IMG/VR virus record: IMGVR_UViG_3300027791_002264 | Coordinates: 1 to 64,000 of that record | Origin: a virus | DNA length: 64,000 bases | Reading direction: 5' to 3' (one strand) | Part shown: positions 18,378-60,785 of the stretch, one piece after another | How positions within the stretch are numbered: the first letter of the stretch is position 1 | Layout: each line of letters begins with the position of its first letter | The notes under the pieces: generated by a model | What the model was told of the DNA's origin: nothing | The model's database searches: none | The model's input: the letters and a program-made list of their open reading frames with translations, nothing else | Position numbers and translations under genes: made by a program

Positions 18378-19589
18378 GTGTTGAAATATTTAAAACTTTT
18401 TGAACAGTTCCTAACAGAAAAGAAACCTAAAGGTGCACCAGATTTCCATCATTCAGATGCACCTGATGCTGAAGGTAGGTTTAAAGATCTTTCTATAAAG
18501 GATTTAGCCGCATGGTTAATTAAAACCAGAAAGAAAGATGTTAAAAAGATTAGTGGTTCTTTAACACAGCAAATAGTTTTTAATAGAAAGAGTGATCCTA
18601 AGTATGCTGAAAAGATGGAGAAAACCAGAAAAGAAGTATATAAACAATTAGGTAGAGAAGATTTACTAAAAGAATCTGTTGATATTGAAGATGGTTTAGG
18701 TAAAGTTTATTTAGCACTAAGAGAAGACAGTGGGCAAAGATGGTGGACTTATAAAGGTTTTGCTGGAGATAAGTTCTTTACACAAGTTCATGAAAATAAC
18801 ATGCATGACATTGATATTAATCCAGACTATCCAGTTTTAACATATCATTCAGATACAGTTAATAAACTAATAAAGGCTGGTAAGATTAAAAAAGAAAATG
18901 TTTATAATCACCCAGACCACATATCAAAATCTGGATCTAAAGAAGAATTCCATAAACTGGTTGGAGAAGATGAAAATATACCTAAGACAGTATATTCTAA
19001 GAATGATGCATTAGAGCAACTAGAATTTCCTATTATTGCAAAACCTGCAGAAGGTCATAGCGGAAAAGGTATTCAGATTATTAATAAACCAGATTTAATG
19101 GAAGATGTAGATGAAAAGATCTTTGATACATTTTCAGAATATATTGATAAAGAAGAAGAGCATAGATTTATAAACTTTAAAGGTAAGCCTATCTTTTGGA
19201 TGGAAAGAACTCCATTAAATGAAAAAGCTAAAACTGGTAAAGGTAGTGCTAAAGGTGAAATGGAATTTGGTTATGCAAAAAGGAGCTTAAGTGATTTACC
19301 TGAAGATTATAGAAAAGTCTTAGAAAGATTCTGTAAGATCTATGAAGATTTACCTTATATGTGTTTTGACGTAATGAAAGGTAAAAATGGAAAAGTATAT
19401 ATTATTGAATCAAATGCACAACCTGGAGTACCTTTTGATTCGACCGTTGAGGCTTATAAGCATATCTATGAAGATTTTTATAAGAAACCTCTTAATAAAG
19501 AAAGTTTAACTAAACTAGAAGAATACGCAAATACAATGATTGAAAAGACCCTCGAGAAAGATGGCGGCAAAAGATTTTCAATTAAATAG
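18378..19589 (+). CDS. ATP-grasp domain protein with capsid-targeting-like N-terminus
   Basis: The start is TTG at 18378, giving LKYLKLFEQFLTEKK, which resembles the T4 internal-protein targeting sequence ending at a (L/I)xE cleavage site. Residues 20-100 form a charged helical domain with LAAWLIKTRKK. Residues about 185-380 are an ATP-grasp fold: FPIIAKPAEGHSGKGIQII (ATP-binding Lys and Gly-rich loop), FWMERTP, and a closing CFDVMKGK ... IIESNAQPG strand with metal-binding residues. Such enzymes join a carboxylate to an amine or thiol; the substrate is unknown. It may be packaged and injected, which is inference. Confidence 0.75.
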   Translation: MLKYLKLFEQFLTEKKPKGAPDFHHSDAPDAEGRFKDLSIKDLAAWLIKTRKKDVKKISGSLTQQIVFNRKSDPKYAEKMEKTRKEVYKQLGREDLLKESVDIEDGLGKVYLALREDSGQRWWTYKGFAGDKFFTQVHENNMHDIDINPDYPVLTYHSDTVNKLIKAGKIKKENVYNHPDHISKSGSKEEFHKLVGEDENIPKTVYSKNDALEQLEFPIIAKPAEGHSGKGIQIINKPDLMEDVDEKIFDTFSEYIDKEEEHRFINFKGKPIFWMERTPLNEKAKTGKGSAKGEMEFGYAKRSLSDLPEDYRKVLERFCKIYEDLPYMCFDVMKGKNGKVYIIESNAQPGVPFDSTVEAYKHIYEDFYKKPLNKESLTKLEEYANTMIEKTLEKDGGKRFSIK

Positions 19590-22881: not shown

Positions 22882-23175
22882 ATGTTTATAAGAACGTACG
22901 CAGATTTTCTTTTAGAAGTTAGAGATAAATCTCATGACAATGCTGGCGATAAAATAGAAAAAGATCATAAAAAAGGTGATCATGCTGGAATAGATAAGAA
23001 ATTAGAAAAAGAATTAGAAGATGAACTTAACGATGTTTCAGAAGATTGCGCCAGGTGCGGGGAGCATATCTCATCTTGCCAATGCGCCGAGACGGACCCC
23101 TGGTCAACTCAAGTTTATCACAGAGCTCCAAAAGGAAAAGAAATTAAACAAAAACCAAAACAAGAATTTAAATAA
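22882..23175 (+). CDS. Capsid-targeting-like N-terminus with Cys cluster, 97 residues
   Basis: I chose ATG 22882 over an upstream TTG (22849) because it gives MFIRTYADFLLEVRD, similar to other targeting N-termini in this window (compare MKHFKTYTDFINEA). A highly charged helix follows, then CARCGEHISSCQC, a likely zinc-binding cluster. It may be a packaged internal protein. The targeting assignment is less certain than for the genes at 41-45 kb. Confidence 0.55.
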   Translation: MFIRTYADFLLEVRDKSHDNAGDKIEKDHKKGDHAGIDKKLEKELEDELNDVSEDCARCGEHISSCQCAETDPWSTQVYHRAPKGKEIKQKPKQEFK

Positions 23176-34026: not shown

Positions 34027-34039
34027 ATATAATAATAAA
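34027..34039 (+). promoter_or_regulatory. ATATAATAATAAA motif, putative late promoter
   Basis: Exact motif ending three bases before the ATG at 34042. It is inside the glycan island, so the island may hold more than one transcription unit. So close to the start, the transcript would have almost no leader. Confidence 0.45.
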
Positions 34040-34041
34040 TT

Positions 34042-34967: not shown

Positions 34968-35493
34968 TATAAATTTTGAGGATAAAGATATTTTTATGCA
35001 TAAGGATGCAGAGTTTAAAATAGACCCAAAGATAGGTAACCATGTTGCTATTGATAAAGGTGTTTATTGTACAGTAAATGCAACAATAGGTGATTATGTA
35101 CATATTGCACCATACGTTACAATAATTGGAGGAAAGACTGGTGTATTTAAATGTAATGGTTTTAATAACATAATGGCTGGTGCAAGAATTGTTTGCGGTT
35201 CTGATAGATTTGATGATAGTGGTTTATTTGGAGCTATGATACCTAAAGAATTTAAAGGAAGGCAAATTATTGAACCGGTAATAATGGAAAGATTTTCTAA
35301 TGTTGGAAGCAATGCAATGGTTTTACCAGGATCTATTTTAAGAGAAGGTGTTTTACTATCTGCTGGTAGTTTATTAATAGGTGATACTATTCCTTGGGGT
35401 GTATATAAAGGAAATCCTGCTAAATTAATAAAAGTAATTGACGGAAATAAAATTAAAGAAAATGCAAAAAAATTAGAGATGGGTAATGATTAA
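34960..35493 (+). CDS. Left-handed beta-helix acetyltransferase, tandem copy
   Basis: The 177-residue product shares KIGNHVAIDKGVYC, IGDYVHIAPYV, MVLPGSILREGVLLSAGSLL and YKGNPAKLIKVI with the gene before it, so the pair arose by tandem duplication. It overlaps that gene by eight bases. The pair may acetylate different positions or act together as a trimer. Confidence 0.85.
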   Translation: MNNINFEDKDIFMHKDAEFKIDPKIGNHVAIDKGVYCTVNATIGDYVHIAPYVTIIGGKTGVFKCNGFNNIMAGARIVCGSDRFDDSGLFGAMIPKEFKGRQIIEPVIMERFSNVGSNAMVLPGSILREGVLLSAGSLLIGDTIPWGVYKGNPAKLIKVIDGNKIKENAKKLEMGND

Positions 35494-36370: not shown

Positions 36371-37179
36371 TGGATAAAATTTTACAATTCCAAAAAGTAT
36401 CATCGGCACACAAATTTGCTGGTGTAGGTATGGGTGGTAACATCTTTATAACTCTCAATTCTTTATTAGCTTCTAAAAAAGATGATAACTTATATGTGGA
36501 TATGGAAACTAATTCTTGTGTATGTACTGAAGACGATTTTAATAAATTTAATACTAATAATTGTTGGGAATATTATTATGATCAAATGCCAAAGCCTGAC
36601 ACAGATAACATCGTAACTAATAAATCTGAAAATGCATTCTTAAATTATAATAAGGTTCCTTTAGTTGATTACAGTGATTTGCAGTATAGATTTAATAACA
36701 ACTTTAAATTAAAAGATTATCTTCAGAACGAATTAGATTCTTATTATAATAATAACCTTAAAGATAAAATAACTTTAGGTGTACAAATAAGATTAACCGA
36801 TATGTTACACCATCATAAAGTATCTCCTCTATCTAAATACTTAATTAGGATACAGGAAATTTTAAATAAAAATCCAAACATAGAACAATTATTTATAGCA
36901 ACTGATGATCATAGAGCAATAGAGGAAGTAAGTAAACATATAAGTATACCAATAATATACCATGAAGCTTTTAGGGCTAGTGATGATGATCCTCAGACTG
37001 ATGAATATGATAGGATGCGAAATAATAGAGAATTTCATAAATATAATTTAAGTAAAGAATGTATTAAAGAAATTTATACTTTAAGTATGTGTAACTTTTT
37101 ATTAAGAGCCGATGTATCTGCAATTTCAAATGTTGCTACTTTACTATCTACTAAAATTAACACACTATATAATTTATAA
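36370..37179 (+). CDS. Fucosyltransferase-like protein, paralogue 2
   Basis: The 269-residue product shares LGVQIRLTDMLHHHKVSPL, LFIATDDHRAIEEV and RADVSAISNVATLLS with the proteins at 33155 and 61699. The first residues (VGMGGNIFITLNSLLAS) form the Gly-rich GT-B N-terminal loop. It starts on the last base of the previous stop. Confidence 0.68.
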   Translation: MDKILQFQKVSSAHKFAGVGMGGNIFITLNSLLASKKDDNLYVDMETNSCVCTEDDFNKFNTNNCWEYYYDQMPKPDTDNIVTNKSENAFLNYNKVPLVDYSDLQYRFNNNFKLKDYLQNELDSYYNNNLKDKITLGVQIRLTDMLHHHKVSPLSKYLIRIQEILNKNPNIEQLFIATDDHRAIEEVSKHISIPIIYHEAFRASDDDPQTDEYDRMRNNREFHKYNLSKECIKEIYTLSMCNFLLRADVSAISNVATLLSTKINTLYNL

Positions 37180-37229
37180 TAAACAATCATCATTTATCTT
37201 ATATAATATATAATAAAACAAATTATAAC

Positions 37230-37862
37230 ATGAGCTTTGAGACTGTAACACAATTAGAAAAACAACTTGCTGAATTTTTTGGAGCACCTTATGCAGTATG
37301 TTTAGATGCATGTACTCATGGTATAGAATTATGCCTAAGACATCAAAATATAAATACAATTACTGTTCCTAAAAGAACTTACATATCAGTACCTTTTCTT
37401 GCAAATAAATTAAACATTAATTTAAAGTGGAGAGATGAAGAGTGGCAAGATTATTATAAAGTAAATGAACATCTTAAACCTATTTATGATGCAGCTGTTT
37501 TATGGAAAAAGGATAGTTATATACCAGGATCTTTTATGTGTTTAAGTTTTCAATTCCAAAAGCATTTATCATTAGGTAGAGGTGGAGCTATACTTTGTGA
37601 TAATAAAGAAGATGCAATTGCACTAAAGAAAATGTCATATGATGGAAGGTTACCAGATGTTCCATGGCGAGATCAAGATATTGAAACATATGGGTACCAT
37701 TATTATATGACACCTGAAACTGCTCAGTTAGGTTTAGATTATTTTGATGAAGCAGTAAAACAAAAACCAAGACAATGGACTATCACAGATTGGCCAGATT
37801 TAACAAAAATGGCAGTCTTTAATAAAAAAGAAGGAGTTGATCCTTATTTACAAACCAAATAA
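37230..37862 (+). CDS. DegT/DnrJ-type sugar aminotransferase, short form
   Basis: The 210-residue product has the family start LEKQLAEFFGAPYAVCLDACTHG, PKRTYISVP and SFQFQKHLSLGRGGAI, in which Lys is the expected PLP-binding residue. Family members have about 370 residues, so the C-terminal dimer domain seems missing. The gap before it carries ATATAATATATAATAAAA, a possible promoter. With Gmd next door, GDP-perosamine-type sugar synthesis is possible (inference). Confidence 0.78.
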   Translation: MSFETVTQLEKQLAEFFGAPYAVCLDACTHGIELCLRHQNINTITVPKRTYISVPFLANKLNINLKWRDEEWQDYYKVNEHLKPIYDAAVLWKKDSYIPGSFMCLSFQFQKHLSLGRGGAILCDNKEDAIALKKMSYDGRLPDVPWRDQDIETYGYHYYMTPETAQLGLDYFDEAVKQKPRQWTITDWPDLTKMAVFNKKEGVDPYLQTK

Positions 37863-37874
37863 CAAATTAAGAAA

Positions 37875-38867
37875 ATGAAAAAAGCATTTATAACAGGAAT
37901 TAATGGACAAGATGGATCTTATCTTGCCGAGTATCTTTTAGATCTAGGATATGAAGTTCATGGAACTGTGAGAAGAAATTCTACATCAGAAAATCAATCA
38001 GCTAGGTTAACGACTGCATATGAAAGTGGTCAACTCACAACTCATTATGGTGATTTATCAGATCAAGGAAGTTTAGAAAGATTACTTGAGCAAATTCAAC
38101 CAGATGAAATTTATAACATAGCAGCACAGAGTCATGTAAGAGTAAGTTTTGATGTACCACAATATACAGTCCAAACAAATGCTGTAGGTGTATTAAATAT
38201 ATTGGAGGCATACCGAAGAGCATGCCCTACTGCTAAATTCTATCAAGCATCTTCTTCTGAAATGTTTGGTTTAACTGTTGAGGATGATGGCTTTCAGAGA
38301 GAAAGTAGTATTATGAATCCAGTATCTCCTTATGGATGTTCAAAGGTATTTGGATATAACATAGTAAGACATTATAGAAGAGCTCATAACCTACATGCTG
38401 TAAATGGAATTTTATTTAATCATGAATCCCCAAGAAGAGGAAGTAACTTTGTAACTAATAAAGTTGTTAAAGCTGCATGTTCTATTAAATTAGGTTTACA
38501 GGATAAATTAGAATTAGGTAATATGGATTCTTATAGAGATTGGGGTCATTCTAAAGATTATGTTATAGCAATGCATGCAATGTTAAATCATGATACACCT
38601 GATGATTTTGTTGTATCAACAATGGAAACGCATTCAGTTAGAGAAATGTGTGAGTTGGTGTTTAAATATTTAGATTTAGACTACAAGGATTATATTTCAC
38701 AAAACCCTAAGTTTATGAGACCTGAAGAATTACCTTATCTTAAAGGAGATTCAACAAAGATTAGAGAAACTTTAAATTGGAAACCAGAATATACTTTTGA
38801 ATCTATGATGCATGAAATGTGTGATCATTGGATGGATGTTTTACAAGGTAAGGTGTCATTGAGATAA
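37875..38867 (+). CDS. gmd: GDP-mannose 4,6-dehydratase
   Basis: The 330-residue product is a short-chain dehydrogenase with FITGINGQDGSYLAEYLL (NADP-binding), HGTVRRNST, the SSSEMFG and YGCSK catalytic blocks, NHESPRRG and RDWGHSKDYV, all features of Gmd. It makes GDP-4-keto-6-deoxymannose, the branch point to GDP-fucose, GDP-rhamnose or GDP-perosamine. YGCSKVFGY carries the Tyr and Lys of the active site. It sits between an aminotransferase and a KdsD-like isomerase. Confidence 0.97.
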   Translation: MKKAFITGINGQDGSYLAEYLLDLGYEVHGTVRRNSTSENQSARLTTAYESGQLTTHYGDLSDQGSLERLLEQIQPDEIYNIAAQSHVRVSFDVPQYTVQTNAVGVLNILEAYRRACPTAKFYQASSSEMFGLTVEDDGFQRESSIMNPVSPYGCSKVFGYNIVRHYRRAHNLHAVNGILFNHESPRRGSNFVTNKVVKAACSIKLGLQDKLELGNMDSYRDWGHSKDYVIAMHAMLNHDTPDDFVVSTMETHSVREMCELVFKYLDLDYKDYISQNPKFMRPEELPYLKGDSTKIRETLNWKPEYTFESMMHEMCDHWMDVLQGKVSLR

Positions 38868-41019: not shown

Positions 41020-42243
41020 ATGCAACACATACCAGACTATAGACAATTTGTCAATGAGCGTGTAAATCTTAAAGCTGCACACTTATCATCTGAGGATTAC
41101 CAAAAGGCAAAAAAGCTTAAAGCTTTTGATTCTGCTGACTGGGCTTGGAATTCAAAATCTCAACTTTATGACAAGGTAAATGAATCAGTAGTTACTGAAG
41201 CTAAGTTTACTAGGTTACCAAAACAATTAAACGCAATGTGGGAGCTTAAAAACTCCGTAGAGAATATGGTTGGTAGGCATGATAATGGAGATGACTATGA
41301 TCCTAATCAAATGAGGACCATTGAGGAATTCATTAAAAAGATTAAAAAATCAGCAAAATCATTTAAATCTAAAGAAGAAGTAGTAGGTACAATCTATGAA
41401 AGTAATTTTTCACCTTTAGGATATGCTAAGAGAGTTGTTGCAGGAGCAATTACTTTAAAGGATGCTATGAAAGAAGCAGGTATTTCATTATCTAATATGG
41501 GAAAGTTAATTAAGAAAATAGATAAAAAGTTTGATATAGATGCGGCATTCTTAGAAAGTAAAGTAAATGAAGGACCTGGTAAAGGCTACTATATAAAGGT
41601 ATCTGTTAGAGATGCTAAAAAAGCTTTAGCAATCCTAGATGATATGTATCGTAAGAAGTTTGATATTAATGGAAGTAATGTTTATTACTTTAAGGATGAG
41701 GATATTGCATATGATGCTATGATGGATTTATCCGCTGAAGATATTGAGATTGCTGATACTAATATTGAGGAATCATTAGATGAAAATGCTGATCCATGCT
41801 GGGATGATTATAAAATAGGATCTCCTAAAACAAAAATATCTTCTAAATCTGGTAAAAGAGTTAATAACTGCGTTCCTAAAGATGAATCAGTAGTTAATGA
41901 AGCAACTGATATTAATGATCCAGTTCTTATGGCATTCAGACGTACTCGAGCAATAATGGAATTACCTAAATTTAAACCAGCTGAAGTAAAATCACGTAGA
42001 ATTAGTTTTGATAAGTATATGGATTTATTAGATTCACAAACAGATATAGCCCAGGACATTAAAGATAAGGCTGAAGAAATGGCTCAAACATTTAGAGACA
42101 TGGAACAAGAAGCTGAACCAGAAGGTGGGGTGATGGCAGACAAATATGGTTCTATTATGATGAATCAAGAAAAGGAATATACTCAGTTAAAAGCTAAGAA
42201 AGCAAAAATTGATGCTAGAGTTGAAAAATATAAAATGAATTAA
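41020..42243 (+). CDS. Multi-segment internal protein with targeting N-terminus and repeated cleavage-like sites
   Basis: The N-terminus HIPDYRQFVNER resembles the T4 internal-protein targeting sequence, ending near VxE. Further sites follow: ESVVTEAK (about residue 56), ESKVNEGPGKG (about 184), ESLDENADP (about 251) and ESVVNEATD (about 290). Between them lie distinct small segments; ENADPCWDDYKIG ... NNCVPK resembles a Cys motif of T4-like structural proteins. The architecture suggests a polyprotein that is cut in the prohead and delivered with DNA. The spacing repeat at DNA level is noted separately. Confidence 0.65.
   Translation: MQHIPDYRQFVNERVNLKAAHLSSEDYQKAKKLKAFDSADWAWNSKSQLYDKVNESVVTEAKFTRLPKQLNAMWELKNSVENMVGRHDNGDDYDPNQMRTIEEFIKKIKKSAKSFKSKEEVVGTIYESNFSPLGYAKRVVAGAITLKDAMKEAGISLSNMGKLIKKIDKKFDIDAAFLESKVNEGPGKGYYIKVSVRDAKKALAILDDMYRKKFDINGSNVYYFKDEDIAYDAMMDLSAEDIEIADTNIEESLDENADPCWDDYKIGSPKTKISSKSGKRVNNCVPKDESVVNEATDINDPVLMAFRRTRAIMELPKFKPAEVKSRRISFDKYMDLLDSQTDIAQDIKDKAEEMAQTFRDMEQEAEPEGGVMADKYGSIMMNQEKEYTQLKAKKAKIDARVEKYKMN
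41182..41205 (+). repeat. 24-base linker repeat (ES-V-V-x-E-A-K)
   Basis: GAATCAGTAGTTACTGAAGC and following bases encode ESVVTEAK. Near-identical copies are at 41884, 44820, 44940 and 57685, always in the same reading frame and between domains. Codon-level identity points to recent copying of a linker. Confidence 0.7.
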
Positions 42244-42245
42244 TT

Positions 42246-43115
42246 ATGAAGCACTTTAAAACATATACAGACTTTATTAACGAAGCAAAAGGTTGGAATG
42301 ATATTGCAAGAGTAATGGATGCAGGATTAAAGAAAGCTATAAAATCAGGTAGTGTACCATTAAAGTATGCTAAAGATTATGTTAAGTCATTAGAAAGAAT
42401 GTCAAAAAGAAATACTAAAAAGTTCTTTGATGAATACGGAGATTTTACTGAAGCTGACTTTATAGAAGATGTAGAATATAATATAGCTAATGAATCTATG
42501 AATGAAGAATTCAAAGTTCATATGATGTATGATCCAAAAACAGGAAAAGGTTATAAAGCAGAAAAACTAGAAGATCATGAAAGAATGAGTAAACTAGGCT
42601 ATGTTCATGATAAACCTAAGGATGATGATATTACAGAATCTGCAATGGGTGAAATTGATATAATGGCTAAAGAAGCTAAAAATCTAAAAGAGTTCACAAA
42701 GGAAATGTTTGCTGAATTTAAAAATCTACCAAAAAAGCCAGATACTTTAAAGTGGATAGAGGAATTATATAACAGTGCAATTAATGAGGCAGAAAAAGCT
42801 GAAGGTGATCGAAGTAAATTGTCAGCTGACATTGAAAAAGCATTAAAGGATAAGGCTACTGAAAGTGGCGTACCTATTGGACTATTAAGATTAGTAATGA
42901 GAAGAGGGCTAGATGCTTGGAATAGTAGTCACCGTGCAGGTGTACCACAGGTTGCTTGGGGTTATGCTCGAGTAAATGCATTCTTAGAAAAAGGTAAAGG
43001 TACTTGGGGTAAGGCTGATGCTGATATTGCTAAAGAAGTTAGAGATGAAGGTAAGGCTGATAAACTACCAATTAAAAATCCTTCAGAATTTACAAAGAAA
43101 GAAAGAGAAGCATAA
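42246..43115 (+). CDS. Internal protein with targeting N-terminus
   Basis: KHFKTYTDFINEAK closely parallels T4 internal proteins (MKTYQEFIAEA). Further candidate sites are NESMNEEF (about 83), ESAMGEID (about 131) and INEAEK. The C-terminal part GLLRLVMRRGLDAWNSSHRAG then VAWGYARVNAFLEKGKG resembles a domain common in T4-like phage structural proteins (DUF5824-like, from memory). It starts two bases after the previous gene and ends in the next start codon. Likely packaged. Confidence 0.68.
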   Translation: MKHFKTYTDFINEAKGWNDIARVMDAGLKKAIKSGSVPLKYAKDYVKSLERMSKRNTKKFFDEYGDFTEADFIEDVEYNIANESMNEEFKVHMMYDPKTGKGYKAEKLEDHERMSKLGYVHDKPKDDDITESAMGEIDIMAKEAKNLKEFTKEMFAEFKNLPKKPDTLKWIEELYNSAINEAEKAEGDRSKLSADIEKALKDKATESGVPIGLLRLVMRRGLDAWNSSHRAGVPQVAWGYARVNAFLEKGKGTWGKADADIAKEVRDEGKADKLPIKNPSEFTKKEREA

Positions 43116-43660
43116 TGAAATTTATAAAAGACTTTAAAGGTTTTGATAAAGTATCTGAAGAACTTAAATATCATGTAGATAATGGTATAGGTTTAGATGA
43201 CACTGTTTTTCGCTTAGGCTCCGATGCACATGGTAAATTGTTTGAAGAAGCAAAAGAGTATTGGGATAAAGGAAATATGGTATTAAATGGAAAAAGTGGC
43301 TTCATGGCTAAAAACCTTGAGGTTGGAACTAAAGCCATATATAAAGATCGTAAATCAGGTAGAACTAAGAAAGTTAAACTTGATTCACCAGAAAGAGGTG
43401 GCAATAAAAAGTTTATTGTTTATCGTAATAGTGGAAGAACCGACAAAGAAACTGGATCAATCGTAGCTAAGAAAATTGAATGGGGAGATCCAGGATTATC
43501 TGTAAAGAATGATGACCCAGGTGCGTCTGCTAGTTTTTGGGCAAGACATCAATGTGATCAAAAGAAAAAGATGGATCCTAATAAAGCAGGGTTTTGGGCA
43601 TGTTATGGTCCGAGTTTATTTGGAAAACAGTTAGGGTTAAAAAGTACTAATCCTTGGTAG
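43115..43660 (+). CDS. Internal protein with RHxCD-type C-terminal domain
   Basis: The N-terminus KFIKDFKGFDKVSEE is a weaker targeting match. The C-terminal half has FIVYRNSGRTDKETG, KIEWGDPGLSVKNDDPGA and ASFWARHQCDQKKKMDPNKA, a pattern seen at the ends of virion or prohead-related proteins in T4-like phages (ARHNCD-type). Its function is unknown. It shares the ATG with the previous stop region, so translation is coupled. Confidence 0.65.
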   Translation: MKFIKDFKGFDKVSEELKYHVDNGIGLDDTVFRLGSDAHGKLFEEAKEYWDKGNMVLNGKSGFMAKNLEVGTKAIYKDRKSGRTKKVKLDSPERGGNKKFIVYRNSGRTDKETGSIVAKKIEWGDPGLSVKNDDPGASASFWARHQCDQKKKMDPNKAGFWACYGPSLFGKQLGLKSTNPW

Positions 43661-43688
43661 AATATATAAAAAAAGAAATTACATTAAA

Positions 43689-44168
43689 ATGAAACATATT
43701 AAGACAATTAATGAGAATGCTGATAGTATTAATGAAGGAAGAGCTGCAGCAAAGGTATTACTTAAATCCGTTATTAATGGTGATGCTAAAGATGTAGAAG
43801 GAATAAAGCTTTCTAAGGAAATGGCTGAGGCTTATTTAGCTTGGTTGGAACAATCAACATACGGTAAGAAGTTCGGTAAATTACCTTTTAATATGTTATT
43901 TGATGCTTCTTTTAATTGGGGTATTCAAAGATATGCTAAAGGTAAATTAGCAAAAGAATTAAAAGACATTAAGGCAAAGTATAAAACTGTTAGAGAAGAT
44001 GCTGAGGATGTTAATGAATCTGCAAGTTCAGAAGAAAAAAGAATTGCAACTAGAGCAATGAGATCAATTGCTAAATATATGAATGTTGATATGGAAAGAG
44101 CTGCACAGTATCTTCTTAACGCAGCTGAAGATGTTCAAAGAGATGTCAAAAAAGGTAAAATAAAATAA
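43689..44168 (+). CDS. Internal protein with targeting N-terminus, 159 residues
   Basis: KHIKTINENADSINEGR ends in an INE cleavage-like site. A second candidate site, VNESASSEE, lies near residue 110. Between are helical segments with no known motif. Position within the block of five consecutive similar starts supports packaging. Confidence 0.6.
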   Translation: MKHIKTINENADSINEGRAAAKVLLKSVINGDAKDVEGIKLSKEMAEAYLAWLEQSTYGKKFGKLPFNMLFDASFNWGIQRYAKGKLAKELKDIKAKYKTVREDAEDVNESASSEEKRIATRAMRSIAKYMNVDMERAAQYLLNAAEDVQRDVKKGKIK

Positions 44169-44171
44169 GAT

Positions 44172-45428
44172 ATGAAATATTTTAAAACATATGCTACTTA
44201 TATAAACGAAGAGCTTAGTGGTCATGCTAAAAAGATGAAGGAAGACGGTCTTAGTGATGATGAAATTAAGAAAATGCATCCTGAGGTAACGGATGAAGAT
44301 TTAAATGAAGCAAAGAAATTTAAAGCAGGTGATATGTGGTCAAAGACTTTTGATTACGGTGGTATGCTAGCAGCAGGCTTAAAGGTTAATGTTAATACAC
44401 CTATTGGTGAACTTAATAAATTATTTGATTCGTTTACTGATGTAAATTATCACAGAGAAGCAAAAGACTTATTAGATGCAATTGATAAGATTGAAAGTGG
44501 CGATAAAAAAGCTGCTTCAAAACATATAGATATGTTTCATAAAGCATGCAAGGAAACTTTAAAGACAAATGAAGCAAGCAACGTTATGAAGGATCTTGAA
44601 AAGATAGGTGGTCAAATTGATTATCTTTCTGATGCTGATGACAAAACTAAAAAGATATGGAAAAAGGCAGGAGTTAATCCAGAAGATGATAATCAAATTA
44701 TTATTTACTCATATGTTAATTCATGGCCTGAAACTAAAAAACTTTTAGATAAGTCAAAGGTTAAATATAAAGAATTAGAAGATCCTAATTCATCAGGTGA
44801 ATCTTTTATTGTGTTTAGTGAATCATTAGTTACTGAAGCTAAAGTTAAGGTAACTAAAAAAGATATTAAAGATATAGAGGACTCTGGTAATATTGATATT
44901 GCATATAAAAAAGCAATGGAATTATTAAAAAGTTTAAGTGAATCAGTAGTTAATGAAGCTAAATTTGTAAAAGAATTTGATAAAGAAGTTTTAGATGCAA
45001 AAACAAAGAAAGAAGTTACAGAAGTTTATCCAAAAGCAAAATTTTATGTTGGTAAGTCGAATCATTTCTTTGGAGATCTAGAAGATAACTTATTTTTTAA
45101 GGCATATTATACAAAAGGACAAAAAGAATTTGAAATAAGGTCAGTATACTCTAAAAAAGGAAGTAACTATGTTTATTTATTTAATGAATCGTTAACTGAA
45201 GCTTATTCCGATGAACAGAGAATGGAATTAGCTGATAAAGGTTTTGCATTATCTGATGGGAGTTATCCTATTAAAGATTTAAAAGACCTTAAGAATGCTA
45301 TTATGGCTTATGGCCGAGCAAAAGATCAATCAAGAACTGCTAAGTTTATCGTAAAGAGAGCAAAGGCATTAGGTGCTGAGGATTTAATTCCTGACACTGA
45401 CGATTTTCAAAAATCACTTAAAGCATAA
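44172..45428 (+). CDS. Multi-segment internal protein with five cleavage-like sites
   Basis: The N-terminus KYFKTYATYINEE is followed by DLNEAKK (about 44), ESLVTEAK (about 219), ESVVNEAK (about 259) and ESLTEAYS (about 342). Segments between are charged and of 40-170 residues. The C-terminal segment (DGSYPIKDLKDLKNAIMAYG ... RAKALGAEDLIP) resembles DUF6582-type domains of phage and bacterial proteins. This is the clearest polyprotein-like layout here. Confidence 0.68.
   Translation: MKYFKTYATYINEELSGHAKKMKEDGLSDDEIKKMHPEVTDEDLNEAKKFKAGDMWSKTFDYGGMLAAGLKVNVNTPIGELNKLFDSFTDVNYHREAKDLLDAIDKIESGDKKAASKHIDMFHKACKETLKTNEASNVMKDLEKIGGQIDYLSDADDKTKKIWKKAGVNPEDDNQIIIYSYVNSWPETKKLLDKSKVKYKELEDPNSSGESFIVFSESLVTEAKVKVTKKDIKDIEDSGNIDIAYKKAMELLKSLSESVVNEAKFVKEFDKEVLDAKTKKEVTEVYPKAKFYVGKSNHFFGDLEDNLFFKAYYTKGQKEFEIRSVYSKKGSNYVYLFNESLTEAYSDEQRMELADKGFALSDGSYPIKDLKDLKNAIMAYGRAKDQSRTAKFIVKRAKALGAEDLIPDTDDFQKSLKA
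44820..44963 (+). repeat. Two linker repeats around a 33-residue segment
   Basis: GAATCATTAGTTACTGAAGC (44820) and GAATCAGTAGTTAATGAAGC (44940) encode ESLVTEAK and ESVVNEAK and flank a segment of about 33 residues (KVKVTKKDI ...), as if a small module had been inserted between linkers. Confidence 0.65.
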
Positions 45429-45709
45429 TGAAAAATTTAAAAACATTAAAAGAATCTTTAGAATTAGCTACACAAGTGCCTGCTAAAACTATTGCTATAA
45501 CAGAAGGAACTGATATAGGTTCATGGAACCAAGGTGGGCTTAAAGGTAATGAAAATGTTCAGGTAACTACTTTCGTTGGTCCTAAGGACATTGAGGATTT
45601 TGGTCTAGGTAGAAAATGTATGCAAATAACTGTAGGCAGAAGTTATGTATCATTAAATCCTGCTGACATCACAGAATTAAAAGATCTTCTTAAATCTTAT
45701 AAAGTTTAA
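45428..45709 (+). CDS. Small internal protein, 93 residues
   Basis: The N-terminus KNLKTLKESLELA is a weak version of the targeting sequence, with ITEG further on. It starts on the last base of the previous gene's stop and its own stop runs into the next start. Otherwise unrecognised. Confidence 0.5.
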   Translation: MKNLKTLKESLELATQVPAKTIAITEGTDIGSWNQGGLKGNENVQVTTFVGPKDIEDFGLGRKCMQITVGRSYVSLNPADITELKDLLKSYKV

Positions 45710-46147: not shown

Positions 46148-48172
46148 ATGGGAGAAATTTATCCAGAAGAAGAAGCACAACAAAGAAAACCAAGATATAA
46201 AAAGACAACTTTAATATTAGATACTTATGGTACTAATCTAAGTAAGTCGGCTATAGAGGGTAAGCTTGATCCAGTTATTGGACGAACTGATGAAATCCTA
46301 AGAGTGATTCAAATTCTAGGAAGGCGAAGAAAAAATAATCCTGTTTTAGTAGGCGAACCTGGTGTAGGTAAAACTGCAATAGTCGAAGGTTTAGCACTAA
46401 AAATGGTAGAGGGTAATGTTCCCATATCATTACAAGGAAAAGTCATATATACTTTAGAGTTATCAACTATCGTTGCAGGTACAAAATACCGAGGTCAATT
46501 TGAGGAAAGAATGAAAAGTATAGTTGATGAATTAATACTCAATCCACATATTATTATTTTTATTGATGAATTACATACCTTAGTAGGGGCAGGTGGTTCA
46601 ACAGGATCATTAGATGCTTCTAATATTATTAAGCCTGCTTTAGCAAGAGGAGAAATTAGATGTATAGGTGCAACAACGTTTGATGAATTTAGAGAAAACA
46701 TTGAAGAAGATGGTGCTTTAGATAGAAGATTTCAAAAAGTAGTAGTAGATCCACCATCGTTAGAAGAAACCATTGAAATACTTTCTAATATTAGACATAA
46801 GTATGAAGAGCATCATGGAGTATCATATTCAGATGATGTAATTAATCTTATTGTTAAATTAGCAGACCGTTATGTTATGGATCGTTTCTTTCCAGATAAA
46901 GCAGTTGATATTTTAGACGAGGTAGGATCTTACAAACATTTAACTAATATGAAGATTCCTCAAAAGATTAAAGCTTTAGAAGAAAAGTTAGTTGAAAAAG
47001 AAAATGCTAAAAGAAAGGCAGTATCAAGGCAATTATATGAAGTAGCTGCGAGAGAAAGAGATATGTGTTTAAATCTTAAAGAAAAAATTAAAACTGATCT
47101 TGCTGTATGGAAAACTGAAATGGCAGTTAATCAACTAGAAATATCTGAAGATGATGTATTAAAGGTTGTATCAAAAGCAACAGGTGTTCCAATAGAAAAA
47201 ATATCTGATAAAGAAAATAAAAATTTACTAGGTCTTAATAAACATTTATCATCTAAGGTTATAGGGCAAGAAGAAGCTGTTAATAAAATAGCAGTAACAG
47301 TACAAAGAAACCGAGTAGGTATTAGAAAAAGAAACCGAACAATGGGTAACTTTATATTCTTAGGACCAACTGGTGTAGGTAAAACTCAATTAGCTAAAGA
47401 ATTAACAGAATATTTATTTAATAGTGAAGATAATCTAATAAGAGTTGATATGTCTGAATACATGGAATCTCATTCTACTTCAAAATTAATTGGAGCCCCT
47501 CCAGGATATGTAGGTTTTGAAGGTGGGGGTTTTTTAACAGAGCAGGTGAAAAGAAAACCACACTCTGTTATATTATTTGATGAAGTAGAGAAAGCTCATC
47601 CAGATGTATTTAATGTACTTCTACAGATGTTAGATGATGGGCAGTTAACTGATTCATTAGGCAGGACTGTTGATTTTAGAAATTGTTTAGTAATACTTAC
47701 ATCAAACACAGGGTCTAGAAAATTAGAAGATTTTGGACAAGGCATTGGTTTTGAAAGCTCTACTAAAATGGTTAATCAAGTTGAAGAAGAAAAATCTATG
47801 TTAAGAAAGGCTCTTAAAAATAAATTCTCACCAGAGTTTTTAAATAGAATTGATGAAATAGTAGTATTTAACAGATTAACAGAAGATAATGTAATGGAAA
47901 TTTTAACTAAGGAATGTAAAGAACTTGCATTAAACTTAACAGAGGTTGGTAATTATATTTTTAAAATATCTAAAGGTGCTAAAACAATAATTTTAAATCA
48001 AGGTTATGATCCTAAGTTTGGGGCAAGACCATTACGTAGAACTGTTGAGAGATTAATTGAAAACAAAGTATCTGAATTAATTCTTAAAGGTGAATTAAAA
48101 GAAGGCGGTACTATTAATGTTAAAAGTACAAAAGGTGAATTAATAATTGATATAACAAATATAAAAGAATAA
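46148..48172 (+). CDS. clpA: ClpA/ClpC-type AAA+ unfoldase with IGF loop
   Basis: The 674-residue product has two AAA+ modules. D1 starts about residue 38 with GEPGVGKT (Walker A, 69-76) and IIFIDELHTLVGAGG; D2 has GPTGVGKTQ near 406 and DEVEKAHPDVFN. An IGF loop lies near 532 (GQGIGFESS); such loops dock ClpP, which ClpB lacks. There is no N-terminal ClpS-binding domain and only a short coiled coil between modules. It feeds substrates into ClpP, whose gene overlaps the stop. Its own promoter lies upstream. Confidence 0.95.
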   Translation: MGEIYPEEEAQQRKPRYKKTTLILDTYGTNLSKSAIEGKLDPVIGRTDEILRVIQILGRRRKNNPVLVGEPGVGKTAIVEGLALKMVEGNVPISLQGKVIYTLELSTIVAGTKYRGQFEERMKSIVDELILNPHIIIFIDELHTLVGAGGSTGSLDASNIIKPALARGEIRCIGATTFDEFRENIEEDGALDRRFQKVVVDPPSLEETIEILSNIRHKYEEHHGVSYSDDVINLIVKLADRYVMDRFFPDKAVDILDEVGSYKHLTNMKIPQKIKALEEKLVEKENAKRKAVSRQLYEVAARERDMCLNLKEKIKTDLAVWKTEMAVNQLEISEDDVLKVVSKATGVPIEKISDKENKNLLGLNKHLSSKVIGQEEAVNKIAVTVQRNRVGIRKRNRTMGNFIFLGPTGVGKTQLAKELTEYLFNSEDNLIRVDMSEYMESHSTSKLIGAPPGYVGFEGGGFLTEQVKRKPHSVILFDEVEKAHPDVFNVLLQMLDDGQLTDSLGRTVDFRNCLVILTSNTGSRKLEDFGQGIGFESSTKMVNQVEEEKSMLRKALKNKFSPEFLNRIDEIVVFNRLTEDNVMEILTKECKELALNLTEVGNYIFKISKGAKTIILNQGYDPKFGARPLRRTVERLIENKVSELILKGELKEGGTINVKSTKGELIIDITNIKE

Positions 48173-48840
48173 TGAATTACGGAAAAGAATTTGAAAAATA
48201 TGCAATGAGTGATCATGGTCTTAGCTCATCAAACATGCATTATGCTAAACAACAATTAGAAAACTCAATGACTCCTTATATTTTAGAGGAAAGACCAATG
48301 AGAGCAACACAAATGGATATATTTTCAAGATTAATGATGGATAGGTTACTTTGGGTAGCTGGGCCAGTTAATGATAATATGTCAACAATTGTGCAAGCTC
48401 AATTAATGTTTTTAGATAATGTAGAAAAGAAAGATATTACAATGCATATTGATTCCCCAGGAGGTTCAGTAAAATCAGGACTTTCTATGGTAGATGTAAT
48501 GGATTATATTAAATCTGATATCAGAACTGTTAATACAGGAATGGCTGCATCTATGGGATCTGTGTTATTAGGAGCAGGAACTAAAGGTAAAAGAAGTTCA
48601 TTAAAACATTCAACTACAATGTTACATCAATCATCAGGTGGTTTTAGTGGAAATATACAAGATGCTGAAATTGATTGGCAACAATGGCAAAATGTAAATA
48701 AAGAATTATTTGTATTGTTAGGTAAGTATTGTGGTAAAAAACCAGAAAAAGTAGCAAAAGATGCAACTAGAGATTTTTGGTTAAATGCAGAAGAAGCCTT
48801 AAAGTACGGAATTATTGATGAGATTATTGGGGCTAAATAA
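48172..48840 (+). CDS. clpP: ClpP-type serine protease
   Basis: The 222-residue product has the ClpP catalytic triad: GMAASMGS with Ser127, MLHQSSGG with His152, and ATRDFWL with Asp201. HIDSPGGSVKSGLSM is the oxyanion loop. An extra N-terminal tail of about 30 residues may be a propeptide. It starts in the clpA stop (coupled). Forms a 14-mer chamber that degrades unfolded polypeptides fed by ClpA. A prohead-protease role is conceivable, but the pairing with ClpA argues for ATP-driven proteolysis. Confidence 0.95.
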   Translation: MNYGKEFEKYAMSDHGLSSSNMHYAKQQLENSMTPYILEERPMRATQMDIFSRLMMDRLLWVAGPVNDNMSTIVQAQLMFLDNVEKKDITMHIDSPGGSVKSGLSMVDVMDYIKSDIRTVNTGMAASMGSVLLGAGTKGKRSSLKHSTTMLHQSSGGFSGNIQDAEIDWQQWQNVNKELFVLLGKYCGKKPEKVAKDATRDFWLNAEEALKYGIIDEIIGAK

Positions 48841-57011: not shown

Positions 57012-57130
57012 TTTTAAAAGGAAAATCACCTCAGTTCATTTTTTGTTACTGGGATGATTATTCTATTTTACCAATAGAAAAGATTAAAGAAAAGATTAAA
57101 GAAAAGATTAAAACAAAGAAATTAAAATGA
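56996..57130 (+). CDS. Tiny Lys-rich protein with triple repeat, 44 residues
   Basis: The start at 56996 overlaps the previous gene, and its TGA overlaps the next ATG (57127). The C-terminal half is a triple repeat of KIKE encoded by AAGATTAAAGAA copies (about 57080-57113). Coupling supports a real gene, but the repeat could also be a spacer. Confidence 0.5.
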   Translation: MDKEIILKGKSPQFIFCYWDDYSILPIEKIKEKIKEKIKTKKLK

Positions 57131-57828
57131 AATACATACAATCATTTAAATCAATTAATGAAGGTGATGATACTATAGGAGGTCTTAATAAAATGGCATC
57201 TACTGATTTAGAAAGAATCGCTGACTATGCTGATATGATTAAAGATAGAATGTCACAAGGACAACAATTAGATGCTTGGATGTATTCTAAAATTTCAGAT
57301 TCAGTTAAAAACCTAAATTCAGTTCATGATACAATGGATGGTAATGATGGTGTTGTTGAAGCAAAATCATTCGGAGCTAAGGAGATAATGAAGGAATTAA
57401 AGAATAGCGGTGATTGGGGAGATTTAGCTGATCAGGTTTATATGAAATCAGGTAATATGGTATTTGTAGACACTTTTTTCTATGGAGAAGAAAGAGCTAT
57501 GAAACAATTAGAAGATTCTTGGAAGAAAGGTGGTAACAATTATGATTATTGGAATAAAGAATATGGTGTTGATTTTAAAATAGTAGATACCTTTTCTGAA
57601 ATAAAAGCACAAGGTAGACATAAAAAATTAACAAAGGATGGGATTGTTGGTGTTGTGTTAAAAGTTACTCCTGGTAAAATATCAGAATCAGTAGTTAATG
57701 AAGGTAAAGGTGCAGAGCAATATTTTGGCGATTTAAAATATAACTACACAAAATCATTACGCTATCTAGATAAAGATGAAAAAAAGGAATATAATAAATT
57801 AGCTAAAGATTTCTTTTCTAAAATATAA
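57127..57828 (+). CDS. Internal protein with targeting N-terminus, 233 residues
   Basis: KYIQSFKSINEGDD ends at an INE cleavage-like site. A later ISESVVNEGKGAE (about 190) is encoded by a copy of the linker repeat (57685-57708). Central part helical then mixed with KQLEDSWKKGG. It opens the second block of such genes. Confidence 0.65.
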   Translation: MKYIQSFKSINEGDDTIGGLNKMASTDLERIADYADMIKDRMSQGQQLDAWMYSKISDSVKNLNSVHDTMDGNDGVVEAKSFGAKEIMKELKNSGDWGDLADQVYMKSGNMVFVDTFFYGEERAMKQLEDSWKKGGNNYDYWNKEYGVDFKIVDTFSEIKAQGRHKKLTKDGIVGVVLKVTPGKISESVVNEGKGAEQYFGDLKYNYTKSLRYLDKDEKKEYNKLAKDFFSKI

Positions 57829-57854: not shown

Positions 57855-58589
57855 ATGAAATACATTAAATTATTTGAAAAGTTTACTAAAGAATATCAAA
57901 CTAAGATAGACCTTAAAGATTTTAAGAAAATCAAAAAAGGATCTATGATTCAGTATATGGGTGTTCCTGTTGAGGTTGTAGATAATAGCGGTTATGTATT
58001 AAAATTAAAAGATGATGACGGTAAAATCTTTGTAGTCAACAAAGGTCAATTTGATCATGGTGGAAGAATTAATGAAGCAAAAGACAATCTTTATTTACAG
58101 TTACATAAAAAATATGCTGAACAAATCAAAGGACTTAAAGCAAAGAAGATTAAGAAACTAACTGATTTGGTAAGTGTACAACGAAGGTCAATGGAAGAAA
58201 GAGAAGATTACTTCGATATGGATTCTAAGAAAAAGAAAGAACTTACAGCAGAATACGATGAAGAAAGAAAACTGTTTAAGAAATATATGGGTCGTGATTA
58301 TTCAGTAATGTTACCTAAAGGAACAGAATCTCTCAGAGAAGCTTCATCTACTGATGGTGGGGATAAATCAAATGGTAATGCTCATCATGAAGACCATAAA
58401 GAAAAAAGCATAGCTCAGCATTGGAAAGATACATACGGAGAAGAATTTAGTTCAAAATATCCAGCCATTGGTAAAATGCTTAAACAGAGACCAGGTATGG
58501 ATAAAAGAGAACTTAAAAGAATATGGGATGAAACTTATGGTGAAAACTTTGAGGAGCAATATCCTGCGCTATATAACAAATTAGATTAA
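57855..58589 (+). CDS. Internal protein with targeting N-terminus, 244 residues
   Basis: KYIKLFEKFTKEYQ is a good targeting match with an early KE rather than xxE ending; RINEAKDN (about 73) and ESLREASS (about 156) are further cleavage-like sites. The final segment repeats DTYGEEFSSKYPAIGKML and ETYGENFEEQYPALYNKL, an internal duplicated motif. Confidence 0.62.
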   Translation: MKYIKLFEKFTKEYQTKIDLKDFKKIKKGSMIQYMGVPVEVVDNSGYVLKLKDDDGKIFVVNKGQFDHGGRINEAKDNLYLQLHKKYAEQIKGLKAKKIKKLTDLVSVQRRSMEEREDYFDMDSKKKKELTAEYDEERKLFKKYMGRDYSVMLPKGTESLREASSTDGGDKSNGNAHHEDHKEKSIAQHWKDTYGEEFSSKYPAIGKMLKQRPGMDKRELKRIWDETYGENFEEQYPALYNKLD

Positions 58590-58593
58590 AACC

Positions 58594-59877
58594 ATGAAAC
58601 ATATTAAAACATTTGAAAAGATTAATGAGCTAAGATCCGATATGATATCTGGAACAAGCGGAAGAAGAATAGATTCTTTAGAAGATAAAAAATATGAATT
58701 AAAGAAAGATGTTAAAGGTGCTACGATTGGAAGCTTTTCAAATGTAACACTCCCTAAAGGAACTATTATTTATAATTTACCTGGCGGATTATTTGCCGAT
58801 CATTTTTCTCTAAAGAATAAGTATTCGAGTAGATCATCACAAGGTCCACAGTATTTTGACAAGCCTGACTTTAAAGGTATAATGATTAGACAAATACCAG
58901 ATGTCTTAGCTGCTATCGAAAAGAACAGTAAAGTTTTAGAATCAATTACTGAAGGAACATATAATTCAAAGAATCATATAGGATCTACTTCTGATGGGCA
59001 AGGTTCTAATGCCGAGATTTATAAAAAAGGAAAAGGGTATTATGTAGTTGTTAGTGGTGAAGCTGATTATGATTTTGATGCAAAGAATGATAAAGAGTTA
59101 TTAAAAAAGTTAAAAGATAATGAATTTGATTCTACTGATATATTAGAATCGGTTAATGAAGCTAAAAGAGCTGGTCTTTCTAAAGAAGAAACTCTAAAAG
59201 TTGCACAGAAATTTGCAAAAGCTTTATCAAAAGTAGATGGTGTAAAGGTTACAGTTAGTAAAGGTCATGAAGAAGATTCATTTGATTTAGATTATGATGG
59301 TGAAGAATACGATGGTGGTTCATATAATATTAATGATGATGGTTCAGTAGTTAATATGGCAGTTAGACATCCTAAAACAAAAGTATCGCCAACTTATGGT
59401 AACATTAACGATGATGTTGCTACAATTGTAAAGACTATTAAGAAGTTACCTAAGATGTTAGGCGAAGGTACTGTTATTGATTTAAGATTAGTTAATGAAA
59501 ATGTTAATGATGAAATTGAAATGGCATTAATGAATTGGTTAAATACTTTAGCTGATGGTGATGCTGTTAATATGTCAGATCTTTATTTAGACAACGGTAT
59601 TCTTTTAGGAACTGTTGCCAAAGAAATAAAACAAGGAAGAGAACAGATTCAAGAATATTTTGAAATGTTTTTAAAGAAAAGCCCAATCGGAAGTATTGAT
59701 ACTTTTATTTTACAAAACTTTGGAGATGTTTGTATTTCTGATGGTACTTATACATTTGAAATTGACGGTGAAGGTGGTAACAGAGAATCAGTTGCAGCAA
59801 GATATACTTATGTATGGAAAAAAGAAAATGAAAAATGGATGATTGCAACACATCACTCATCAGTAAACCCTAAATAA
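58594..59877 (+). CDS. Internal protein with SnoaL/NTF2-like C-terminal domain
   Basis: KHIKTFEKINELRSD is a targeting match. Sites ESITEGTYN (about 125) and ESVNEAKRAG (about 188) divide segments. The C-terminal domain (about 305-427) with DEIEMALMNWLNTLADGD and VAARYTYVWKKENEKWMIATHHSS matches the NTF2/SnoaL (calmodulin-kinase association) pattern. A packaged SnoaL fold is unusual. Confidence 0.65.
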   Translation: MKHIKTFEKINELRSDMISGTSGRRIDSLEDKKYELKKDVKGATIGSFSNVTLPKGTIIYNLPGGLFADHFSLKNKYSSRSSQGPQYFDKPDFKGIMIRQIPDVLAAIEKNSKVLESITEGTYNSKNHIGSTSDGQGSNAEIYKKGKGYYVVVSGEADYDFDAKNDKELLKKLKDNEFDSTDILESVNEAKRAGLSKEETLKVAQKFAKALSKVDGVKVTVSKGHEEDSFDLDYDGEEYDGGSYNINDDGSVVNMAVRHPKTKVSPTYGNINDDVATIVKTIKKLPKMLGEGTVIDLRLVNENVNDEIEMALMNWLNTLADGDAVNMSDLYLDNGILLGTVAKEIKQGREQIQEYFEMFLKKSPIGSIDTFILQNFGDVCISDGTYTFEIDGEGGNRESVAARYTYVWKKENEKWMIATHHSSVNPK

Positions 59878-59878: not shown

Positions 59879-60214
59879 ATGAAATATTTAAAAGACTTTG
59901 ATTTAATAAATGAAGGAAGACCTATGTTCCAAGATACTCCTAATGAGTTAGCTTATTTAGATTTTAAAAAATGGGCATATAAGAACAGAGGTAAGATCAA
60001 AAAAGAACTTGCTGGTATTACAGATGGTACTAAATTATTCATTGCCTTAAGACAAGTGTGGATGGATTGGGCAAACAAGAATGCAAAAGAATGGAGTTAT
60101 CTTCATTCAACTGATGTTGCAAGAAAAGATTTTGGCAGAGCTTTAGCTATAATGCTAAAAACAGATGATCTTATTATAAAAAAATCTGGTAATAAATTAA
60201 TAGATTTAAAATAA
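59879..60214 (+). CDS. Small internal protein with targeting N-terminus, 111 residues
   Basis: KYLKDFDLINEGRP ends at an INE site. The remainder is helical with three Trp residues and no known motif. It starts one base after the previous stop. Confidence 0.6.
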   Translation: MKYLKDFDLINEGRPMFQDTPNELAYLDFKKWAYKNRGKIKKELAGITDGTKLFIALRQVWMDWANKNAKEWSYLHSTDVARKDFGRALAIMLKTDDLIIKKSGNKLIDLK

Positions 60215-60215: not shown

Positions 60216-60785
60216 ATGAATAATATACCTACATTTAAAGAATTTAATAATAAAAGATTAATTAATGAAACGTATGATTTGTTAGAAGGTAGTGTAAGCT
60301 ATGAAGATCTTAATGATGTTTTAAATGAAGGTATCTTTTCTTTTATTAAAGGTATCTTTATGAACCCAGGGCAAAAAAGAAAGCTAAGAAAGTTAGGAGA
60401 TCAATTATTTAAAATAAAAGTTCAAATTCAAAAATTAGATATAGAACAAAATGATATTGACAAAGCTGAAGGAGAACTTAAATCTAAAGATTCTAATTAT
60501 ACAGCAGATCCTATAGTAGCAGTAGCAGTAAATGCAGAAGAAAAGAAAAAGCAAGCATTACAAAATAAAGAAGGTATTGTAATAGATCAAATGGATTCTG
60601 TTGCTGGGCAGAATGAAACTCTAACTAAATATGTTAATAAACTTAAATTGGAAGTTAGGATGAAAGCTAATGAAGCTACTATTAAAATAGCTGATGATGA
60701 AATGGAAAGAATTCTAAAAAAGATACAAAAGAAAGATGCTAAAGAAATTGAAAAACTGGATAAAGACTTGGGTGAAGCAGCCTAA
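60216..60785 (+). CDS. Coiled-coil internal protein, 189 residues
   Basis: NNIPTFKEFNNKRLINETY resembles the MQHIPDYRQFVNER start at 41020. After NEGIFSFIKGIFMNPGQ, a hydrophobic segment, the rest is a long charged coiled coil ending in GEAA. It ends the second block before a terminator. Confidence 0.6.
   Translation: MNNIPTFKEFNNKRLINETYDLLEGSVSYEDLNDVLNEGIFSFIKGIFMNPGQKRKLRKLGDQLFKIKVQIQKLDIEQNDIDKAEGELKSKDSNYTADPIVAVAVNAEEKKKQALQNKEGIVIDQMDSVAGQNETLTKYVNKLKLEVRMKANEATIKIADDEMERILKKIQKKDAKEIEKLDKDLGEAA

What the first reader, a model, noticed from the sequence alone, without database searches (positions are those of the whole stretch)
41020..45709. A family of proteins with a T4-like capsid-targeting N-terminus
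At least six consecutive genes (41020, 42246, 43115, 43689, 44172, 45428) and five more (57127-60785) start with a short basic/aromatic stretch ending in (I/V)NE, like the T4 internal proteins (MKTYQEFIAEA). Two others (18378, 22882) match less strongly. T4 uses this tag to carry proteins into the prohead, where gp21 cuts after (L/I)xE; several T4 internal proteins are then injected and disarm host defences. Thirteen such proteins would make an unusually large injected set.
Basis: partly seen in the sequence, partly recalled or inferred. Interest (0 to 1): 0.88.

Follow-up and report, generated by a model that had tools for sequence, protein, structure and literature searches.

The report
Phage head cargo built as polyproteins
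A marine giant phage appears to make a dozen proteins carrying the same entry tag that phage T4 uses to load proteins into its head, and several of them are chains of interchangeable modules joined by cutting sites for the head's own protease, so one tag could load several separate proteins that may then be injected into the host.

Summary
The tag is real, though not in every listed gene. Of the 11 genes in the two blocks, 8 have a literal (I/V)NE near the N-terminus. The tag matches T4's capsid-targeting sequence MKTYQEFIAE at the residues known from T4 mutants: aromatics at P7/P4 (targeting) and aliphatic P3/E at P1 (cutting). A contig of the same phage population (99.99% identical over 10,994 bp) carries, upstream of the window, a T4-gp21-type prohead protease (Peptidase_S77; catalytic His and Ser aligned) and the major capsid gene.

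Several of these proteins carry internal ES(V/L)x(N/T)E|(A/G) sites, often doubled. Homology blocks between phages begin at these sites: about 37 of 89, against about 4 of 89 decoy positions. The same module is internal in one phage and N-terminal behind a tag in another. I read them as modular polyproteins: one tag carries several modules into the prohead and the protease separates them. Internal sites keep the cutting residues but usually lack the targeting aromatics. The protease is fused to nine exact 14-residue repeats (YSEY(L/V)(A/G)E) that resemble the tag, suggesting that cargo docks as a mimic of a scaffold repeat.

Injection and counter-defence remain inference. This is a new variant of the T4 internal-protein system.

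The parts
18378..19589 (+). Tagged two-module protein: tag MLKYLKLFEQFLTE (cut codon 18417-18419), a KKPKGAPDFHHS module and an ATP-grasp (YheC/D, RimK-like) enzyme module
   Evidence: ATP-grasp PF14398; N-module stands alone with a tag in G023_150704 and ATP-grasp stands alone with a tag (MKIKDFQTFLNE) in G026_21933
22882..23175 (+). Small tagged protein, MFIRTYADFLLE|V
   Evidence: Frame and tag conserved in G001; weakest candidate, never seen in another module context
41020..42243 (+). Polyprotein: tag MQHIPDYRQFVNE (cut codon 41056-41058); internal sites at 41182-41184 and 41197-41199 (VNE|SVVTE|A), 41569-41571 (KVNE|GPGKGYY) and 41899-41901 (VVNE|ATD)
   Evidence: Block between the last two sites is 86-87% identical to g1_73992, where it directly follows the N-terminal tag
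42246..43115 (+). Two- or three-module protein: tag MKHFKTYTDFINE; site 42636-42638 (ITE|SAM) before a DUF5824 module; possible site 42786-42788
   Evidence: PF19141; block starts at the site against g1_73992:447
43115..43660 (+). Tagged protein MKFIKDFKGFDKVSE|E, basic, with a WGD..FWAC module
   Evidence: Same gene in G001 and G023; module also internal in Melnitz and G029 proteins
43689..44168 (+). Tagged basic protein MKHIKTINENADSINE|GRAAAK
   Evidence: Same module is internal after VVTE|A or LTE|G sites in G023_59139 and G033_6441
44172..45428 (+). Polyprotein: tag MKYFKTYATYINE; sites 44307-44309, double 44820-44822/44835-44837, double 44940-44942/44955-44957, double 45186-45188/45198-45200
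   Evidence: YSDE module at residue 345 is N-terminal behind a tag in g1_77476; two modules are in reverse order in g1_92487
45428..45709 (+). Small module with site AITE|GTDIGSW (45503-45505); weak tag
   Evidence: Module starts after SITE|G inside g1_77476
57127..57828 (+). Polyprotein: tag MKYIQSFKSINE|G; sites 57358-57360 (GVVE|A) and double 57685-57687/57700-57702 (ISE|SVVNE|G)
   Evidence: First module is internal, between VVIE|G and GVTE|A, in g1_120258
57855..58589 (+). Tagged protein MKYIKLFEKFTKE; internal site 58074-58076 (RINE|A)
   Evidence: First and last parts are separated by other modules in g1_93389
58594..59877 (+). Polyprotein: tag MKHIKTFEKINE|L; sites 58951-58953 (SITE|G) and 59158-59160 (SVNE|A); C-terminal SnoaL/CaMKII-association-like domain
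   Evidence: PF08332; residues 185-427 form a separate tagged protein MKHIKTFDSINE|A in G001
59879..60214 (+). Single-module tagged protein MKYLKDFDLINE|GRPMFQ (cut codon 59912-59914)
   Evidence: Invariant E12 across seven relatives with divergent tags; internal in G028_70471; model low-confidence for the tag, four helices after it
60216..60785 (+). Tagged protein MNNIPTFKEFNNKRLINE|T, IPI-like spacer between targeting and cutting parts
   Evidence: Conserved in G001; compare T4 IPI MKTFKEFTSTTTPVSTITE|A

Best explanation
The genes encode prohead-core cargo of a T4-like jumbo myophage. Each protein starts with a capsid-targeting sequence. Its aromatic P7 and P4 residues dock it in the scaffold core, and the following (I/L/V)(N/T)E is cut by the phage's gp21-type protease. 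Several of the proteins are polyproteins: further cut sites without the aromatics, often doubled as xxE|SVVNE|A, separate 60-240-residue modules. One tag thus loads several modules, which the protease frees inside the prohead. The protease carries nine 14-residue repeats of a tag-like unit, so cargo probably docks as a mimic of a scaffold repeat, and cutting breaks down the core and frees the cargo. The freed modules are then probably ejected with the DNA. Shown by sequence: tags, sites, modular swapping at the sites, and the protease in the same population. Inferred: packaging, cutting, docking, injection and what the modules do.
For: Tag and site counts exceed shuffles. T4 IPII/IPIII begin MKTYQEFIAEA, and T4 mutants place targeting at residues 4 and 7 and processing at 8 and 10 (PMC9026906); the tags match at those positions. 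N-terminal sites have both aromatics in 17/42 against 5/74 internal sites (p = 3e-5), and internal sites carry ES upstream in 27/74 against 3/42. Doubled internal sites: 26/68 against 6.1 at random positions. Module swapping between internal and N-terminal places; block starts at about 37/89 real sites against about 4/89 decoys in 12 decoy sets. Protease, capsid gene and a further tagged head-cluster protein (MAKLKTYSEFINE|G) in the same population; T4-type portal in G001. Nine exact 14-aa tag-like repeats in the protease, shuffle mean 0.1, no other protein of G007 or G001 with three or more. A window module lies in genes annotated as capsid maturation protease in Gordonia and Microbacterium phages.
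Against: No virion proteomics exists for this phage or any close relative that I could find. About half of the internal sites are not at a detected block boundary. Some tags lack the aromatics (43689, 45428). Scaffold repeats have A/G/S at P2 where cargo has N/T, and a tandem repeat counts as about one independent event. The one structure model of a multi-module protein was too poor to test linkers.
Confidence: 0.75

Rival explanations
1. The proteins are packaged and lose their tags as in T4, but the internal motifs are only linkers or recombination seeds; the multidomain proteins stay intact, like polyvalent proteins.
For: Polyvalent multidomain phage proteins with mosaic domains are known and some are packaged unprocessed (PMC5512222). 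Similar linker DNA could itself promote recombination.
Against: The same module is found directly behind the N-terminal cut site in one phage and an internal site in another. Internal sites keep exactly the cutting residues and are often doubled. No embedded peptidase domain was found in the proteins scanned.
Confidence: 0.15
2. Cutting is done by the ClpP-like protease encoded just downstream (48172-48840, with a ClpA-like ATPase at 46148), not by the S77 prohead protease.
For: 48172 matches PHROG head-maturation-protease families and lies beside the cargo block here and in G001.
Against: The portal-protease-capsid cluster already has an S77 protease, with tag-like repeats. The ClpA/ClpP neighbours were not found in G023, which has the same cargo modules. 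ClpP with a ClpA partner normally degrades rather than makes single cuts (general knowledge).
Confidence: 0.05
3. The N-terminal stretch has nothing to do with the head, for example a leader affecting expression or stability of non-virion proteins.
For: No direct virion evidence for this phage; the modules mostly have no known function.
Against: The tag fits T4's mapped CTS, including a head-cluster protein of the same population. Tags and internal sites are interchangeable at module starts.
Confidence: 0.05

Closest known systems
T4 internal proteins IPI, IPII, IPIII and Alt with capsid-targeting sequence, cut by gp21
   Same: N-terminal tag with aromatics at the targeting positions and (I/L)xE cut; S77-type protease with His and Ser aligned; T4-type portal and gp23 capsid gene in the group
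   Different: More tagged genes; several are multi-module polyproteins with internal, often doubled sites; protease fused to a repeat region with tag-like units instead of a separate gp22
Polyvalent proteins of phages and conjugative elements (PMC5512222)
   Same: Mosaic multidomain proteins, predicted to be packaged and delivered
   Different: There, release is thought to use peptidase domains in the protein itself; here it would be the head protease in trans at short sites between modules
phiKZ/SPN3US inner-body and ejection proteins (PMC10052503, PMC5694885)
   Same: Giant phages with many head proteins cut by a gp21-related protease after xxE
   Different: In SPN3US 13 of 14 mapped sites remove N-terminal propeptides; no module arrays flanked by sites are described there
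P1 DarB/DarA defence proteins (PMC9024508)
   Same: N-terminal packaging signal, injected counter-defence cargo
   Different: Unrelated proteins; no internal site arrays reported in the passages read

Membership tests
T4-type CTS cargo (internal proteins) | Short N-terminal sequence with aromatic targeting residues 4 and 7 and cut motif (I/L)xE at 8-10 | tested here: met
   41020, 42246, 44172, 18378 and 22882 fit fully; 57127, 58594 and 59879 are one-residue-shorter variants; 57855, 60216 and 43115 partial; 43689 and 45428 lack the aromatics (T4 mapping)
T4-type CTS cargo (internal proteins) | Phage encodes a gp21-type (S77) prohead protease with catalytic His and Ser | tested here: met
   Absent from the 70-kb fragment but present in G007, 99.99% identical over 10,994 bp
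T4-type CTS cargo (internal proteins) | Protein found in the head and cut after the tag | not testable with these tools
   Needs virion mass spectrometry
T4-type CTS cargo (internal proteins) | Ejected into the host | not testable with these tools
   No isolate
Polyvalent proteins | Multidomain protein with embedded peptidase or polyvalent-type domains | tested here: not met
   Pfam scans of the cargo found DUF5824, SnoaL-like and ATP-grasp domains only
Peptidase S77 prohead protease | Pfam match above curated cut-off | tested here: met
   PF03420 53 bits against cut-off 27 in the G001 orthologue; 56 bits over cut-off in G007

The most novel reading that the evidence does not exclude
A cassette system for virion cargo: modules are concatenated into polyproteins, loaded on a single tag that mimics one repeat of the protease-fused scaffold, cut apart inside the prohead by the same protease that dismantles the scaffold, and exchanged among marine T4-like phages at the protease sites.
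Probability: 0.5. Interest if true: 0.85.

Novelty: new variant of a known kind. Interest (0 to 1): 0.74.

Why it matters
If true, a tailed phage expands its set of packaged proteins by making cargo as polyproteins that share one entry tag and are separated by the head protease, a strategy I did not find described in the searchable literature for phage cargo. It gives a sequence rule, (I/V/L)(N/T)E|(A/G/S) with or without upstream aromatics, for predicting packaged and cut proteins in uncultured jumbo phages. It also offers a testable idea of how a capsid-targeting sequence works: as a copy of the scaffold's own repeat. T4's tag already loads foreign proteins, so a naturally multi-cargo version may be useful as a delivery design.

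Tried and rejected
Peptidase_S77 in the window's own 70-kb record: none, because the record starts downstream of the head cluster; found on contig G007 instead. tblastn of 58594 against annotated phages gave no match; 44172 matched only through its YSDE module. The 18378 N-module had no match in annotated phages. AlphaFold2 of 59879: pLDDT 71, residues 1-15 disordered, four helices after; no PDB fold match at E below 3.8. AlphaFold2 of 58594: pLDDT 39, unusable. PDB profile search for 59879: nothing credible. Literature: no paper found describing prohead-protease sites between cargo modules; the phiKZ proteolysis paper is not held. BLAST boundaries could be an artefact of similar linkers, so sites and equal numbers of decoys were masked alike.
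Full report
What the window is. The window is bases 1-64000 of a 70,419-base virus record. It is a fragment of a large T4-like myophage genome: tail sheath at 632-3877, with best annotated relatives LR756500 (462 kb) and, more distantly, Flavobacterium, Tenacibaculum and Prevotella phages. No Shine-Dalgarno-like sequence is evident upstream of the cargo genes, which with those relatives suggests a Bacteroidota host (inference). The first 10,994 bases are 99.99% identical to contig G007, which continues upstream and supplies the missing head genes of the same virus population.

Observation. All named genes exist. Eight of the eleven in the two blocks have a literal (I/V)NE near the N-terminus; 43115, 45428 and 57855 do not. 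The N-terminal motif exceeds shuffles: 5 against 0.8 in the own record and 14 against 1.6-2.0 in the 181-kb relative G001. The distant LR756500 has ten tags of the form MKYIKEYEDFINEA.

Match to T4. I read the T4 proteins from the T4 record: IPII and IPIII begin MKTYQEFIAEA, IPI begins MKTFKEFTSTTTPVSTITEA, and gp23 has FGSFLTE|A. T4 mutant work places targeting at residues 4 and 7 and processing at 8 and 10 (PMC9026906). Counting back from the cut glutamate as P1, these are P7, P4, P3 and P1. In the window, 41020 (YRQFVNE), 42246 (YTDFINE), 44172 (YATYINE), 18378 (FEQFLTE) and 22882 (YADFLLE) match at P7, P4 and P1. 57127, 58594 and 59879 have an aromatic at P6. 60216 resembles IPI, with FKEF, a spacer, then LINE.

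The protease. Peptidase_S77 is absent from the fragment but present in G007, G001 and most related contigs that reach that region. The GELDHP and ISSRA motifs align with T4 gp21 GELNHP and VSSRG. In G001 the order is T4-type portal, protease, gp23-type capsid protein, then a tagged protein MAKLKTYSEFLNEG. G007 has the same protease, capsid protein and tagged protein.

Internal sites. Many of these proteins carry further sites of the type ES(V/L)x(N/T)E|(A/G), for example 41020 at P1 = 60, 184 and 294, and 44172 at 222, 262 and 343. They are often doubled, as in VNE|SVVTE|A or LSE|SVVNE|A: 26 of 68 internal sites have another hydrophobic-x-E four to six residues upstream, against 6.1 at random positions. 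Against random hydrophobic-x-E positions in the same proteins the mean is 15.4 and the maximum of 300 trials is 25, so part of the doubling follows from glutamate-rich composition.

Module exchange. Comparing the own record with G001, residues 182-291 of 41020, internal here, directly follow the N-terminal tag of g1_73992. Residues 185-427 of 58594 form the separate tagged protein g1_95079. The last module of 44172 (NESLTEA|YSDE) is N-terminal in g1_77476 (GEFITEA|YSDE). The first module of 57127 is internal in g1_120258. Two modules of 44172 occur in the opposite order in g1_92487. The pattern extends to other contigs, with polyproteins up to 873 residues. With sites masked, and an equal number of decoy positions masked alike, 34-40 of 89 internal sites were at homology-block starts against 2-7 decoys, over 12 decoy sets. 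One near-duplicate genome was removed, but the remaining genomes are related, so these are not all independent events.

Two kinds of site. N-terminal sites carry aromatics at P7 and P4 in 17 of 42 cases, internal sites in 5 of 74 (p = 3e-5); internal sites carry ES upstream in 27 of 74 against 3 of 42. This fits the T4 division of labour: tags target and are cut, internal sites are only cut.

Scaffold repeats. The protease of the own population (570 aa) continues into nine units exactly 14 residues apart (YTEHIAE, YTEYLSE, YSDYLAE ... YSEYIAE, residues 243-361), each with aromatics at P7/P4, aliphatic P3 and E at P1. No other protein in G007 or G001 has three or more such matches; shuffles give 0.1. 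The array is kept in eight related protease loci and is degenerate in G023, G033 and LR756500. T4 gp22 does not contain it. As a tandem array it counts as roughly one independent match (my estimate from the shuffle rate: about 0.003 for a 14-residue unit), so the docking idea is suggestive, not shown. In T4 the internal proteins co-purify with the scaffold gp22 (PMC9026906), which fits.

What the modules are. Most have no known function. Recognised: DUF5824 in 42246, a SnoaL/CaMKII-association-like domain at the end of 58594, and an ATP-grasp ligase-like domain in 18378. By analogy with T4 Alt, a tagged ATP-grasp enzyme could modify host proteins (inference). The YSDE module lies in genes annotated as capsid maturation protease in Gordonia and Microbacterium phages, an independent link to heads. 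A 650-aa protein of the isolated Methylophilales phage Melnitz joins modules resembling parts of three neighbouring window genes, 41020, 42246 and 43115 (by reading the sequence; only the DUF5824 part was matched by BLAST).

Limits. Packaging, cutting and injection are inferred; no virion proteomics was found for this group. Structure prediction was informative only for 59879, where the tag region is low-confidence and helices follow it. The literature search covers open-licence PubMed Central papers only.

Verdict. The larger finding is that several of these proteins look like polyproteins of exchangeable modules separated by head-protease sites, a new variant of the T4 internal-protein system.

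Noticed in passing
window 46148-48840: ClpA-like ATPase (674 aa) and ClpP-like protease (222 aa) directly downstream of the cargo block; the same pair follows the block in G001, but no counterpart was found in G023.
   Followed up: partly
window 10948-11457: A tmRNA gene (tag peptide DNAELAMAA) followed by tRNA-Gly and tRNA-Ala.
   Followed up: no
window 54467-54581: A tRNA match by Rfam spanning 115 bases, longer than normal and missed by ARAGORN; possibly an intron-bearing or odd tRNA.
   Followed up: no
window 28608-38867: Block of sugar-related genes (sialyltransferase-like, aminotransferase, nucleotide-sugar epimerase) whose gene content differs from the corresponding region of G001.
   Followed up: no
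L222:2879-4831 (Melnitz EXVC044M): Cytidylyltransferase-like protein carrying modules resembling parts of three neighbouring window genes in one chain.
   Followed up: partly
L092:11-1939, L202:1381-3273: The major capsid protein itself starts with a strictly conserved LINE|AE motif in four phages; whether it is cut there is unknown.
   Followed up: partly
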